From: a virus
DNA: 64,000 nt
Virus record (IMG/VR): IMGVR_UViG_3300049740_002873
Location: 1-64,000 of that record
Direction: 5' to 3' (one strand)
A model generated the notes under the pieces. The model did not search any database. It was given only the letters and a program-made list of their open reading frames with translations, and was not told the DNA's origin. Positions 3,079 to 23,309 of the stretch are shown piece by piece; positions within the stretch are counted from its first letter, which is position 1, and each line of letters starts with the position of its first letter. The position numbers were made by a program, and so were the translations under genes.

Positions 3079-3591
3079 CTATATAGTACACTTTTCAATC
3101 AGTTTTAACGCTTCATCTTTATTTTTCCAGCCAAAAGTTTCTACATCTATATATTTGTGGTTGGATAGTCTTTTGTAATTGTTGAAGAAATTTTCACAAA
3201 GCTGCAGGAATAAATTATCTATATCGTCTAAGCTTGTATATTTTTTTATATGAGACTGAGGGATGGCTAAAATTTTATCGTCGACAAATCCATTGTCTAT
3301 CATTGATAGATATCCAAGAGGTCTACAATTTACAACAACGCCTCTATCAATTGGTATTCCATTATATATCAAGATATCGAGCGGATCTCCATCTTCAGCT
3401 TTAGTTTTTGGTATAAATCCATAGTTCGACGGGTATACCATGGGACTCAAGAGACATCTATCGTATTCAAAGTAACCTTGGCTTTCATTGAATTCGTATT
3501 TAACATTGGTGCCCTTTGGTATTTCCACCACTGCGTTAATATTAACTGGGAAATTTTTGGGATGAGATATATTAAACAAATTACAAGTCAT
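3079..3591 (-). CDS. ppa: Inorganic pyrophosphatase, family I
   Basis: The protein hydrolyses PPi to two phosphates in the cytoplasm. The family-I active site appears complete: EIPKG and VKYE near the N-terminus, DRCL, YPSNYGFIP, the DGDPLD signature, D...DDKILAIP, and a late NYK. Length (about 170) matches bacterial enzymes. An earlier in-frame ATG at 3600 directly abuts a late-type motif. I prefer the ATG at 3591, which leaves 9 nt after the motif as at other sites. Just upstream is a MazG-like mini-protein and further upstream a dUTPase; both release PPi, so this enzyme would pull those reactions and DNA synthesis forward. Confidence 0.93.
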   Translation of the reverse strand: MTCNLFNISHPKNFPVNINAVVEIPKGTNVKYEFNESQGYFEYDRCLLSPMVYPSNYGFIPKTKAEDGDPLDILIYNGIPIDRGVVVNCRPLGYLSMIDNGFVDDKILAIPQSHIKKYTSLDDIDNLFLQLCENFFNNYKRLSNHKYIDVETFGWKNKDEALKLIEKCTI

Positions 3592-3600
3592 ATAATGCAT

Positions 3601-8689: not shown

Positions 8690-9055
8690 TGGTGGACGTG
8701 GCGGGAGTCGAACCCGCGTCTTTAAATCTTCAGTGATATACTTCTACAAGTTTAGTTAATTTTTTTTATAGTTATGACATTAACATCCAACTTCTTGTTT
8801 CAATTATTTACAGTTTGTGATACAAGAAAACTTTTTCTGTTTTGCAGATTGGTAACCTCGCAATCTTTTTATCTGCGTCAAAAGCTGCGAGGTGACAGAC
8901 GTTATGCTGCCAAAGCGAAAACTTCGCTTTTTGGAGCGAAGCTTTCGACACGACTAAGATTTTTGCCATGTAATTTTTTGCGTTTTTTTAAGGAGCCAAA
9001 CGCTCTCCTACTTGCAGTACATAAATTCAATTTAAATCGAATCCAGTACACGCCC
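8690..9055 (-). ncRNA. ssrA: tmRNA (one-piece transfer-messenger RNA)
   Basis: A 366-nt RNA read from 9055 to 8690. The 5' GGGCGTG pairs with CACGTCC near the 3' end (one G-U), followed by an encoded ACCA. A T arm GCGGG-TTCGACT-CCCGC is present, and GGATTCGA stands in the D-like region. P2 pairs TTTAAAT with ATTTAAA and CTGCAAG with CTTGTAG. Pseudoknot PK1 is visible (AGGAG/CTCCT with GCGTTT/AAACGC), PK2 (ACCTCGCA/TGCGAGGT with GCAGAT/ATCTGC), and PK3 and PK4 are plausible. A 12-nt gap after PK1 leads to resume codon GGC at 8967. The tag frame 8967-8902 encodes 21 residues ending VESFAPKSEVFALAA then TAA. It rescues stalled ribosomes with host SmpB; no smpB is seen here. Confidence 0.95.
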
Positions 9056-9079
9056 ATAGACTGTTAAAGATCTAATATT

Positions 9080-9091: not shown

Positions 9092-9430
9092 TCAGAATAG
9101 CTCTTCAGGAATATTCTCATCTTTAGCCGCTTGAGCTTTAGCTTGAGCTGGCTGAGAGGCTTGCACTTCTTGCGCTGCTTGCTGAGCAACTTCGCCTACA
9201 TCCTGTTGATCTTCAGATCTATAGATGACATAGTCTGGAGCGCGTTCATTCTTTTCTCTACCTTTATTGGTAAAAATAACTACTTTAACTTGCTCTGTTA
9301 CTCCAGGCATAGTTTCGACGTTAATACTACCAGATAAATATTTCTGACTCTTTCCACTTCGCACCCAAAGAGCTCCAAGCTCTCTGCTGCGCCACTTTGA
9401 TTCTTGTTTTTCTTCTGTTTGGTTTTCCAT
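9092..9430 (-). CDS. DUF736-like protein with SSB-type C-terminal tail
   Basis: 112 residues. The first 75 follow the DUF736 pattern: ELGALWVRSGKSQKYLSGSI..., a VVIFTNKGREKN strand and APDYVIYRSED. The middle is Gln/Ala-rich (VAQQAAQEVQASQPAQAKAQ), likely a flexible linker. The end DENIPEELF is acidic with terminal hydrophobic residues, like the protein-interaction tip of single-strand binding proteins. A small ssDNA- or replication-associated role is inferred. It follows the 56-residue basic gene and lies just upstream of the tmRNA. Confidence 0.6.
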   Translation of the reverse strand: MENQTEEKQESKWRSRELGALWVRSGKSQKYLSGSINVETMPGVTEQVKVVIFTNKGREKNERAPDYVIYRSEDQQDVGEVAQQAAQEVQASQPAQAKAQAAKDENIPEELF

Positions 9431-9432
9431 AA

Positions 9433-9603
9433 TTATTGATTATACATGTTGGTTAATCCATTTAGGTATAAAGCTTGAGCCCCTTTACTTAGTCTGGAGT
9501 ATTGTTTTTTCGCTCTTCTGTAGTTTCGTTTTTGAGTTTCATCAATAACAGAAAGATCGATGTTTAAAATTTTTCTTATTTGCTTTGATTGTCTGCCGTT
9601 CAT
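9433..9603 (-). CDS. Small basic protein (56 aa), unknown
   Basis: ATG 9603 to TAA 9433, beginning MNGRQSKQIRKILNIDLSVI and rich in Arg/Lys/Tyr. No family is recognised. It is the first gene after an excellent sigma-70-type promoter whose -10 ends 7 nt before the ATG, which strongly supports it as real. The stop lies 2 nt before the DUF736-like start, so the two form a short operon. Confidence 0.65.
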   Translation of the reverse strand: MNGRQSKQIRKILNIDLSVIDETQKRNYRRAKKQYSRLSKGAQALYLNGLTNMYNQ

Positions 9604-9610
9604 ATAAAAG

Positions 9611-9639
9611 ATTATAAGATATTATTCTAGTAAAGTCAA
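9611..9639 (-). promoter_or_regulatory. Sigma-70-type promoter (TTGACT-N17-TATAAT)
   Basis: On the minus strand TTGACT (9639-9634), 17 nt, then a perfect TATAAT (9616-9611), with the ATG at 9603 only 7 nt beyond. The message should be leaderless or nearly so. Confidence 0.78.
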
Positions 9640-9646
9640 GATTTTT

Positions 9647-10393
9647 TTAAGAGAAAATACTACTTTCCCAGTCGAAGTGCCCGAAGTATATCTTCTCTTG
9701 TTTGCTTGGGTTTTTGTATCCTTTTGTTACGAAACTATTTATGTCTTCTTTAAATTGAGATATTATATTGTTTTGAGTTTTTTCGAAAGATGATTTTTTT
9801 AAAAGAAACTTTAAGTTCGAGCAATATTGACTGCTGTAAAGTAAATCCGCATGCTTTAGTCTTGGATAAACTGTAGCATCGATCGATTTTCTTCTCGCAG
9901 AAAGCTCTAGGGCTTCGTTGTGATTGGGCATACTTAATTTTAAAACTTTATTTATTAATTTAATTAGAGGCTTATTGTATATGTAATGATATTTTCTAAT
10001 GCTAAGATTGTCGCTAATACAAATTGATGTCTTATTGTCTGTTGAAAAATATATAGACTTAATAATAGAGTTGGTGTTTAAATTATGTTTAATACTAAGA
10101 TTGATTCCTCTTAATGATTTTTGATTGTGACCTTTAAATATTTTTGTAACATTAGAATAGTATAATTTTTTGAATCTATTGTTGTCTGAAAATTTGTTTA
10201 TAAAGTCCTCTAGATCTATAAGGTTGTATTTGTAAAGTTTTATGTATAATTTTATTGCATTAATTTTTTCATCAAAATCAAATGCAAAGCCGTCTAGGCA
10301 TTTACAGTTCTCTTTAAAGAGTAAAGATGTGTCCGCGAAACTGATAAGCTTTTTTGCCTGATCTGTTTCTGCTAAATAATCTCTAATTTTCAT
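9647..10393 (-). CDS. Hypothetical protein after the citrate-synthase-like gene
   Basis: Start chosen at ATG 10393, which overlaps the TAG of the upstream gene; an open frame extends to 10468 but inside that gene. The 248-residue product starts MKIRDYLAETDQAKKL. Strand-like segments such as GFAFDFDEKINAIKLYIKLYK and SIIKSIYFSTDNKTSICIS may form repeated antiparallel elements. No family is recognised. Its tight coupling with a GNAT and a citrate-synthase-like protein suggests a shared acyl-CoA-related or biosynthetic step, but that is only context. Confidence 0.6.
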   Translation of the reverse strand: MKIRDYLAETDQAKKLISFADTSLLFKENCKCLDGFAFDFDEKINAIKLYIKLYKYNLIDLEDFINKFSDNNRFKKLYYSNVTKIFKGHNQKSLRGINLSIKHNLNTNSIIKSIYFSTDNKTSICISDNLSIRKYHYIYNKPLIKLINKVLKLSMPNHNEALELSARRKSIDATVYPRLKHADLLYSSQYCSNLKFLLKKSSFEKTQNNIISQFKEDINSFVTKGYKNPSKQEKIYFGHFDWESSIFS

Positions 10394-10991
10394 TAACAAT
10401 GTTCTCGAAAGAAGGGACGACTTTATTAAACTTATCTTTTGTTTTATTGTATAGCTTGAGCCACCCAAAACTTCTTCCTAGAAGCGGTAAAAATAAACAG
10501 TTTTTTGCCTCTATGCCATTATCTAGAGATAAGCTTGCTATAATACATCCTATATTCATTGAGACTGGTAGTCTTGATTCTAATTGTGTTGCAAACAAGG
10601 TATGTTTTCCTTGAAGGTCTCTAAATTTATTAAATAAATATGTTACCCTTGGATCTTCTCCTTTAATCGAGGGATGCCCAAAGCCTGGAATTTTTTTATT
10701 TTTGAAATTATTTATGACCTCGCTAGGCTCTAATAAATAATTAGAGTCTAAAAATTCTGCAATTTGTCTTATTGGTAAATGCTCTGAGGTTATACAATTT
10801 AATCCACAAGAAATAGCTTGCGGTAATTCAGCCCCACAATTTGCAGATAGAGCCACAGCTGCGGAGCTGGGAGGTTCATTGTCTATCGGGAACTCAATAA
10901 AAATTTCAGACAAGCTACTAAATAATTGAATTTGCTTATCTGAAACTAAATCTTTACCTGTTAAGTATTGTACTATTTCATTGAAGATCAT
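10383..10991 (-). CDS. Short citrate synthase/citryl-CoA-lyase-like protein
   Basis: 202 residues that line up with the C-terminal catalytic part of citrate synthase and citryl-CoA lyases. PPSSAAVALSANCGAELPQAISCGL precedes a His (H71, at the HGGA-like position). PGFGHPSIKGEDPR (H106, with the DPR oxaloacetate/CoA element) is nearly consensus. LPVSMNIGCIIASLSL matches the next helix, but the catalytic Asp expected there is Gly or Ile. The large-domain N-terminus of full citrate synthase (over 360 residues) is missing. It could cleave or bind an acyl-CoA, or be a non-catalytic relative. It overlaps the GNAT gene by 14 nt. Confidence 0.7.
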   Translation of the reverse strand: MIFNEIVQYLTGKDLVSDKQIQLFSSLSEIFIEFPIDNEPPSSAAVALSANCGAELPQAISCGLNCITSEHLPIRQIAEFLDSNYLLEPSEVINNFKNKKIPGFGHPSIKGEDPRVTYLFNKFRDLQGKHTLFATQLESRLPVSMNIGCIIASLSLDNGIEAKNCLFLPLLGRSFGWLKLYNKTKDKFNKVVPSFENIVNEN

Positions 10992-11472: not shown

Positions 11473-12444
11473 TTAAATATATTCCCACGCAGTTTCTTTT
11501 AATGAAGATAAATCTTGTCCTCCTGAGTAACTTATAGAGCTTTGAAGGTCTTGCGTGATTTCTTTAAGCTTGTGTTCATATGTCATGCTATTGTTTTTAA
11601 TTTTATTAAGTTTGCCCTCTATATGATTTCGATGTTTTTTGTTTTCGTAGCTGGCAGATCCAAAATAAGCCTTGTGAAATTCTCCATTAATTTCTATAAC
11701 CGAAGCTGGACTATCTGCACAACTCGCAAATAAACCACCCGCCATAACCATTTCTGCTCCAGCTGCCATAGCTTTGGCGATATCTCCATTGCAAGATACG
11801 CCTCCATCAGCTATAATAGGAACTTTTTTAAAATCTTCATCAGTTTCTATATAGGCATCGCTACATTTTTGTACGCAACTAAACATTGGTACTGTAAACC
11901 CTGTCTTGTCTTTAGTTGTGCATGGAGAGCCCTGCCCTATTCCTACTTTAACTATATCTGCTCCGGCGGAAGCCAAATCAATAACACCCTGCCTCGTAGC
12001 AACATTGCCTGCAATAATTTTTGTATTTGGTAATTCTTGTTTAATAAATTTTATCATATTGATCATTTTTTTTGAATGACCATGTGCAATATCTATTGTT
12101 AGAAAATCGACATTATGTTCGCGTTTTTTTATTTTATATATTTTTTCTTTATCTATTTCCTGAACTCCGACACTAAAAGAAATTGTTTTCCAGTTTTCTG
12201 AGTTTGCTGTTGCTACGTCTTCTGTAAGATCGTTATCAAACCTATGCATTATATAAAAATAATCGTTTTCGCTCAGCCATTTTGCTAGGCTCAGGTTTAT
12301 CACAGACTTCATATTCGCTGGAATAATTGGCAGCTTATATTGTTTATCGAATAAACTTATGCTTGCGTCGCAAGCCGAACGGCTGTCACATTCGCTATAC
12401 TGCGGAATTAAAACTATATCTGAATATTTATATTGTTTAACCAT
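11473..12444 (-). CDS. guaC: GMP reductase
   Basis: An IMPDH/GMPR-family TIM barrel of about 323 residues. YSDIVLIP near the start, IPANMKSV, DFLTIDIAHGHS, IIAGNVAT, DIVKVGIGQGSPCTTKDKTGF with the catalytic Cys, IADGGV and MVMAGGLFA are in GMP-reductase order. No CBS domains are inserted, and the CTTK version of the active loop fits GMP reductase rather than IMP dehydrogenase. It converts GMP to IMP with NADPH, releasing ammonia. I take the ATG at 12444, which gives an N-terminus matching the family; an in-frame ATG at 12453 would add three residues. It follows the deoxyribosyltransferase-like gene. Confidence 0.92.
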   Translation of the reverse strand: MVKQYKYSDIVLIPQYSECDSRSACDASISLFDKQYKLPIIPANMKSVINLSLAKWLSENDYFYIMHRFDNDLTEDVATANSENWKTISFSVGVQEIDKEKIYKIKKREHNVDFLTIDIAHGHSKKMINMIKFIKQELPNTKIIAGNVATRQGVIDLASAGADIVKVGIGQGSPCTTKDKTGFTVPMFSCVQKCSDAYIETDEDFKKVPIIADGGVSCNGDIAKAMAAGAEMVMAGGLFASCADSPASVIEINGEFHKAYFGSASYENKKHRNHIEGKLNKIKNNSMTYEHKLKEITQDLQSSISYSGGQDLSSLKETAWEYI

Positions 12445-12562
12445 AGAATTCATCGTCCTCTTTCTTTCTTACTCTCCAAGCTAGGTAACCAAAAAACGGG
12501 ATTATAATAAAATCTCCTGGGAAAAATTCAAAATATGATGCGGATGCTATTACTTCTATCAT
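12437..12562 (-). CDS. Single-pass mini membrane protein (41 aa)
   Basis: ATG 12562 to TAA 12437, starting MIEVIASASYFEFFPGDFII and ending RVRKKEDDEFYG. One hydrophobic stretch (about 4-30) is followed by a basic then acidic tail, the usual inside-positive arrangement. The start forms an ATGA overlap with the upstream deoxyribosyltransferase-like gene, and the stop overlaps the guaC start, which argues that it is translated. Function unknown. Confidence 0.55.
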   Translation of the reverse strand: MIEVIASASYFEFFPGDFIIIPFFGYLAWRVRKKEDDEFYG

Positions 12563-23235: not shown

Positions 23236-23309
23236 AGCCTGGTGGTGTAATGGTAGCACAGAGGTTTTTGGTACCTTTAGTCGGGGTTCAAGTCCCTGCC
23301 GGGCTGCCA
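23236..23309 (+). tRNA. tRNA-Gln (anticodon UUG)
   Basis: A 74-nt cloverleaf with encoded CCA. Acceptor AGCCTGG pairs with CCGGGCT (one wobble). Anticodon stem GAGGT/ACCTT encloses loop TTTTGGT with anticodon TTG (positions 34-36), and T stem CGGGG/CCCTG encloses TTCAAGT. Discriminator is G. It reads CAA and, by wobble, CAG. It stands between the chaperone candidate and the tape-measure gene and is probably cut from their transcript. Confidence 0.95.

What the first reader, a model, noticed from the sequence alone, without database searches (positions are those of the whole stretch)
8690..9055. Complete tmRNA gene inside a phage genome
The RNA has a full acceptor stem with encoded CCA, a T arm, a P2 helix, clear pseudoknots PK1 and PK2, and a tag frame starting exactly 12 nt after PK1 and ending -EVFALAA. 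Phage-encoded tmRNAs are known but rare. It has its own late-type motif, suggesting that ribosome rescue is wanted during virion production. No SmpB is seen, so it would use the host's.
Basis: partly seen in the sequence, partly recalled or inferred. Interest (0 to 1): 0.85.

Follow-up and report, generated by a model that had tools for sequence, protein, structure and literature searches.

The report
Phage tmRNA behind a boxA signal
A marine phage carries a complete, apparently working tmRNA (the RNA that frees stuck ribosomes), and just in front of it, as in most of its relatives and many unrelated phage tmRNA genes, lies a boxA-like sequence, the signal bacteria use to help copy their ribosomal RNA; that pairing appears not to have been described before.

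Summary
The tmRNA is real: Rfam scores 9055..8690 (minus strand) at 138 bits, and 33 viral relatives show strong covariation in P1, P2, P5 and PK1, PK3 and PK4 (PK2's second helix is invariant). The G3:U70 alanine-identity pair is invariant, as is the U-A before the resume codon, and the tag frame (GKNLSRVESFAPKSEVFALAA) is under protein-level constraint. It is not host contamination: about 20 independent viral contigs keep it beside the same phage gene, and 8 of 9 relatives of at least 120 kb carry it. Phage tmRNAs are already known (402 of 18,146 genomes in one survey), so this alone is a new member of a known kind.

The "late-type motif" is misread. It is not enriched in the genome and matches boxA, the NusB/S10 site of rRNA leaders. 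It occurs 16-19 nt before the tmRNA in 30 of 36 distinct relatives; at least 120 viral stretches have boxA plus a tmRNA 5' end, against 2 for a scrambled boxA; no true case appeared in the bacterial ssrA genes sampled. A near-perfect sigma-70 promoter heads the operon, so expression looks host-type, not late. Best reading: a phage ribosome-rescue RNA transcribed by host RNAP with Nus-factor help and using host SmpB. The boxA link is the new part. Host unknown.

The parts
8690..9055 (-). tmRNA gene (ssrA-like), 366 nt, one-piece, CCA encoded
   Evidence: RF00023 138.4 bits, E 4.2e-54; covariation in 33 viral homologues; fold z-score -6.3
9049..9055 (-). acceptor stem P1 5' strand GGGCGUG; pairs with 8694-8700 CACGUCC; contains G3:U70 wobble (alanine identity)
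   Evidence: G:U at the third pair in 33/33 homologues, other pairs covary
8690..8700 (-). P1 3' strand plus ACCA end
8701..8717 (-). T arm (P5), GCGGG-UUCGACU-CCCGC
   Evidence: 99.4% paired with compensatory changes
8980..9009 (-). pseudoknot PK1
   Evidence: both stems covary across homologues
8902..8967 (-). tag reading frame GKNLSRVESFAPKSEVFALAA*, resume codon GGC 12 nt after PK1; conserved U-A at 8972-8971, the A four nt before the resume codon as A86 in E. coli
   Evidence: translation; synonymous codon differences 37% against 14.6% expected and 13%/6% in other frames
8844..8892 (-). pseudoknot PK2
   Evidence: stem 1 covaries; stem 2 invariant, so untested by covariation
8793..8832 (-). 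pseudoknot PK3
   Evidence: stem 2 covaries
8755..8792 (-). pseudoknot PK4
   Evidence: stem 2 covaries
9062..9072 (-). boxA-like element GATCTTTAACA, begins 17 nt before the mature tmRNA 5' end (one mismatch to GYTCTTTAANA)
   Evidence: 30/36 distinct relatives, 0/40 bacterial ssrA, 6/3198 random windows; at least 120 viral stretches against 2 with scrambled boxA; window sequence read
9092..9430 (-). upstream gene, 112 aa, DUF736-like (borderline PF05284 hit); syntenic marker of the operon
   Evidence: Pfam E 1e-4; 22 relatives, each with enough sequence followed by tmRNA
9433..9603 (-). first ORF of the operon, 56 aa, unknown function
   Evidence: open frame; start codon 7 nt after the -10 box
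9611..9639 (-). sigma-70 type promoter TTGACT-17-TATAAT heading the operon
   Evidence: 11/12 here, 12/12 in 21 of 21 relatives; only 0.8% of shuffles reach 11

Best explanation
A functional phage tmRNA lies in a short operon headed by a host-type sigma-70 promoter. Where the transcript passes from translated message into the untranslated, heavily folded tmRNA it carries a boxA. The host NusB-S10(NusE) complex would bind it, joining NusA/NusG/SuhB on the polymerase, so that RNA polymerase is not stopped by Rho and the RNA folds and matures properly, as in rRNA operons. Host RNase P and exonucleases make the ends. Host alanyl-tRNA synthetase charges it through G3:U70. Host SmpB and EF-Tu carry it to stalled ribosomes, and translation resumes at GGC, adding Ala-GKNLSRVESFAPKSEVFALAA, a degradation tag of the ClpXP type. 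The phage keeps ribosomes recycling while mRNAs are being cut or degraded during infection. Shown by computation: RNA architecture, tag constraint, conservation in phages, the boxA-like motif and its position, the promoter match. Inferred: expression, Nus binding, charging, SmpB use, tagging, benefit to the phage.
For: Rfam 138 bits. 33-sequence covariation: 93.7% of cells paired, 50 of 92 pairs with changes on both sides, 0/500 shuffles; G3:U70 in 33/33. Tag frame under protein constraint. U84/A85 invariant, matching the A86 ruler rule (PMC2481249). Syntenic in all relatives with enough sequence; 8 of 9 records of 120 kb or more. boxA in 30/36 against 0/40 and 6/3198; at least 120 viral stretches against 2 with scrambled boxA, 25 sequence clusters; 0 of 249 Bacillota and no true case in 113 genomes of the Verrucomicrobiota class. 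boxA consensus GYTCTTTAANA from PMC5725501. Promoter 12/12 in 21/21. No tyrosine integrase in 16 records, so not an att-site remnant.
Against: No expression or binding data. The window's boxA has A at position 2, outside the gamma-proteobacterial consensus; the boxA consensus of the unknown host is not known. 6 of 36 relatives lack the motif (L026 degenerate; L036, L038, L040, L048, L049), so it is not indispensable. The count of 120 comes from a scan that required the motif, and 23 of the 99 distinct sequences did not pass my tmRNA end check.
Confidence: 0.66

Rival explanations
1. Functional phage tmRNA, but the upstream motif is a DNA promoter (a dedicated phage or host sigma site) rather than an RNA boxA.
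For: A/T-rich TTTTAT next to the 5' end resembles a -10 box; near-fixed distance to the mature end.
Against: Conserved positions match boxA (GNTCTTT-A-A) and the consensus-N position 10 varies as in boxA; no genome-wide excess of the motif; a near-perfect sigma-70 promoter already heads the operon; the same element precedes unrelated viral tmRNAs.
Confidence: 0.15
2. The phage tmRNA is a decoy: its boxA leader and its tRNA-like domain titrate host NusB/S10 and SmpB, shifting host resources rather than rescuing ribosomes.
For: Tag-less tmRNA-like domains occur in viral contigs and the DS6A form inhibits tmRNA (PMC4131195, PMC11915505).
Against: The tag frame and resume-codon determinants are under selection here, not needed for a pure decoy; the leader should be removed on maturation.
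Confidence: 0.1
3. Ordinary horizontally acquired host gene, carried neutrally or as an integration-site remnant.
For: ssrA is a common attachment site and 3' fragments of it occur in many temperate phages.
Against: Full length, no tyrosine integrase in 16 records, kept in 8 of 9 large relatives, viral tmRNAs form one clade (support 0.996) apart from the sampled bacteria.
Confidence: 0.04
4. Assembly chimera or bacterial contamination.
For: The record is an uncultured metagenome contig.
Against: About 20 independent contigs carry the same gene order.
Confidence: 0.01

Closest known systems
Bacterial tmRNA (RF00023, standard one-piece form)
   Same: All structural elements, encoded CCA, G3:U70, resume-codon spacing, -ALAA tag end
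   Different: This 3' end (CRCGTCCACCA with this T arm) was found in only 2 contigs of the 84,980-species genome collection; 21-aa tag, where 10 aa is the most frequent length (PMC11915505); boxA directly upstream
Phage-encoded tmRNAs (mycobacteriophages Bxz1 and Wildcat, Bacillus phage G; PMC4131195) and marine methylophage Melnitz (PMC9004378)
   Same: Complete tmRNA gene carried by a phage; in Melnitz also without an integrase and from the sea
   Different: Melnitz has a permuted two-piece tmRNA with a glutamine riboswitch; this lineage has a one-piece tmRNA with boxA. Whether the mycobacteriophage copies carry boxA was not tested (records not held)
boxA / Nus-factor sites of rRNA operons, suhB and lambdoid phages (PMC5725501)
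   Same: Sequence match, and position in the leader of a stable structured RNA as in rRNA
   Different: Applied to a phage tmRNA; the published boxA survey states that it did not consider non-coding RNAs

Membership tests
tmRNA (RF00023) | Covariance model above gathering score over the whole length | tested here: met
   138.4 against 47 bits, positions 1-374
tmRNA (RF00023) | Acceptor stem with G3:U70, T arm, no anticodon arm, CCA | tested here: met
tmRNA (RF00023) | Pseudoknots | tested here: met
   PK1, PK3, PK4 covary; PK2 stem 2 invariant
tmRNA (RF00023) | Tag frame after PK1 ending in a hydrophobic degradation signal, under selection | tested here: met
   12-nt spacer, ALAA end, synonymous bias
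tmRNA (RF00023) | Alanine charging, SmpB binding, tagging of stalled chains | not testable with these tools
   needs biochemistry
Phage-encoded tmRNA | Lies among phage genes and is kept in related phages | tested here: met
boxA element | Match to GYTCTTTAANA | tested here: inconclusive
   exact in 9 of 36 relatives, one mismatch in the window copy and 20 others, i.e. 30 of 36 with at most one mismatch
boxA element | Located in the transcript leader of a stable RNA, conserved in position | tested here: met
   16-19 nt before the mature end
boxA element | Binds NusB-S10 and changes termination | not testable with these tools
   needs binding and reporter assays
Integration-site ssrA remnant | Integrase nearby or 3' fragment only | tested here: not met
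   full-length gene; no PF00589 in 16 records; serine integrases not searched

The most novel reading that the evidence does not exclude
Phages of many lineages have brought their tmRNA genes under the host rRNA antitermination (Nus/boxA) system, so that ribosome-rescue RNA is made like ribosomal RNA during infection, a coupling that the bacterial ssrA genes sampled do not have.
Probability: 0.5. Interest if true: 0.75.

Novelty: new variant of a known kind. Interest (0 to 1): 0.6.

Why it matters
It would show how phages express long untranslated RNAs in a cell where Rho terminates untranslated transcripts, and would give Nus factors a target outside rRNA, lambdoid nut sites and the few known mRNAs. 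It makes an open question testable, why phages carry tmRNA, because the control element and the tag (SEVFALAA end) can be read out separately. It also gives a sequence signature for finding phage tmRNAs that ARAGORN misses.

Tried and rejected
Late promoter reading: motif not enriched in the record. Close known relatives: no match for the tmRNA or the 112-aa gene in 50,697 phage records. Host by tmRNA similarity: the same 3' end occurs in only two bacterial contigs; a Verrucomicrobia MAG shares the 5' sequence too, but it is 1 of 388 genomes of that phylum, so no host is assigned. Tags of two divergent relatives (AKNIVSFEDF..., ANNIVRFEDF...) resemble cyanobacterial tags as I remember them; not tested. 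My first boxA-plus-tmRNA scan had the wrong D-loop spacing and returned 15 stretches with no ARAGORN tmRNA call. The single pattern hit in a Verrucomicrobiota-class genome has no tmRNA by ARAGORN and reads as coding sequence. Mycobacteriophage Bxz1 and Wildcat records were not held, so boxA in classic phage tmRNAs is untested. E. coli could not serve as a centre for Pseudomonadota; its ssrA shows no boxA directly upstream. ARAGORN's tag ANNYMATKTVLKLLA for L003 and others is a likely miscall; the frame at the conserved resume position gives GNKNRVKAFGLKAKKLALAA.

Full report
Observation. Rfam RF00023 matches the whole tmRNA model at 9055..8690 on the minus strand with 138.4 bits. ARAGORN misses it but finds it in most relatives. 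The record is a 73,336-base linear IMG/VR virus contig, with tape-measure, tail-tip J and minor tail proteins; by its tail genes it is a long-tailed phage, with no match for its tmRNA, its 112-aa upstream gene or one tail protein in 50,697 sequenced phage records.

Anatomy. Helices were placed by hand and counted on 33 distinct viral homologues (67-93% identical to the window). 93.7% of cells pair against 39.8-46.5% when the partners are slid; 50 of 92 pairs have changes on both sides and no shuffle of 500 reaches this. Nothing varies at G3:U70, the pair that directs alanine charging (established knowledge). PK1, PK3 and PK4 covary; PK2 stem 2 is invariant and so untested. The resume codon is GGC, 12 nt after PK1, with invariant U84 A85; A85 lies four nucleotides before the resume codon, as A86 does in E. 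coli, where it sets the frame (PMC2481249). The tag is GKNLSRVESFAPKSEVFALAA. Among 20 distinct 21-aa tag genes, 37% of codon differences are synonymous, against 14.6% expected and 13% and 6% in the other frames: the peptide is selected.

A phage gene, kept by phages. Twenty-two viral contigs share the 112-aa gene upstream; all that reach far enough have the tmRNA soon after it, in some after one more small ORF. Searching by an unrelated tail protein, 8 of 9 records of 120 kb or more, and 10 of 28 shorter ones, carry a tmRNA. No tyrosine integrase was found in 16 records and no SmpB in 15. A tree puts 35 viral tmRNAs in one clade with support 0.996 apart from sampled Bacillota, Verrucomicrobiota and E. 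coli (the bacterial sampling is narrow).

The upstream motif. A weight matrix from 30 relatives finds no excess of it in the record. The element GHTCTTTNANA begins 16-19 nt before the mature 5' end in 30 of 36 distinct genes; 9 are exact to the gamma-proteobacterial boxA consensus GYTCTTTAANA (PMC5725501). It is in 0 of 40 bacterial ssrA controls and 6 of 3198 random 40-nt windows. It persists where the upstream sequences are unrelated. Ninety-nine distinct sequences fall in 25 clusters with very different tags; 76 have a matching acceptor stem with G3:U70 and a T loop, 62 are called tmRNA by ARAGORN. The pattern is absent from 249 Bacillota genomes, and its one match in 113 genomes of the Verrucomicrobiota class is not a tmRNA. 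Four literature searches found no paper that ties boxA to tmRNA; absence from an open-access library is weak evidence.

Timing. A sigma-70 promoter heads the operon: TTGACA-17-TATAAT perfect in 21 of 21 relatives, 11/12 in the window at 9639-9611; 0.8% of shuffles reach 11. Similar sites precede other leftward genes of the nucleotide-metabolism block. This suggests host-polymerase, early or middle expression. Timing itself is inferred.

Mechanism. The most likely function is ribosome rescue with host SmpB, EF-Tu, alanyl-tRNA synthetase and proteases, the long folded transcript being protected from Rho and helped to fold by Nus factors at boxA. The RNA part is strongly supported; the Nus part rests on sequence and position alone.

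Known and new. Phage tmRNAs are published: 402 of 18,146 phage genomes (PMC9004378), mycobacteriophages and phage G (PMC4131195), huge phages, some with SmpB (PMC7162821). What I did not find described is the boxA in front of them.

Side result. Scanning for the tRNA-like domain alone found 18 viral contigs with tag-less mini-tmRNAs whose acceptor stems carry G3:U70. Phage DS6A is the published phage precedent (PMC4131195, PMC11915505). One 211-kb relative has both forms.

Noticed in passing
L243-L260 (viral contigs); also L242 1501-1573: Tag-less mini-tmRNAs of roughly 65-90 nt: tRNA-like domain with G3:U70, GGATTYGA loop, short P2 and CCA but no mRNA part, in 18 viral contigs and about a dozen distinct sequence types. 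DS6A is the only published phage case I found; they may inhibit tmRNA or rescue without tagging.
   Followed up: partly
L236 and L242 (record G467, 211,117 bases): One large relative carries both a full tmRNA (tag ANNIVRFEDFTACGEELALAA) and a tag-less mini-tmRNA about 46 kb apart.
   Followed up: partly
L020 3333-3701, L026 5562-5929, L241 1501-1867: Some otherwise intact phage tmRNAs have an altered, 8-nt T loop (AAUCGAAG instead of UUCGANU) with a conserved stem.
   Followed up: no
window 10383-10991, minus: 202-aa protein with a weak match to the C-terminal domain of citrate synthase (E 1e-5, below Pfam's cut-off); odd for a phage.
   Followed up: no
window 3079-3600 and 11473-12453, minus: Inorganic pyrophosphatase and an IMP dehydrogenase/GMP reductase homologue in the same leftward block as dUTPase and dCMP deaminase: a nucleotide-supply set.
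   Followed up: no
window 4259, 7709, 9639, 13134, minus: Near-perfect sigma-70 promoter matches directly before leftward genes, suggesting a host-polymerase block distinct from the structural genes.
   Followed up: partly
window 23236-23309, plus: tRNA-Gln(TTG) between structural genes, just before the tape-measure gene.
   Followed up: no
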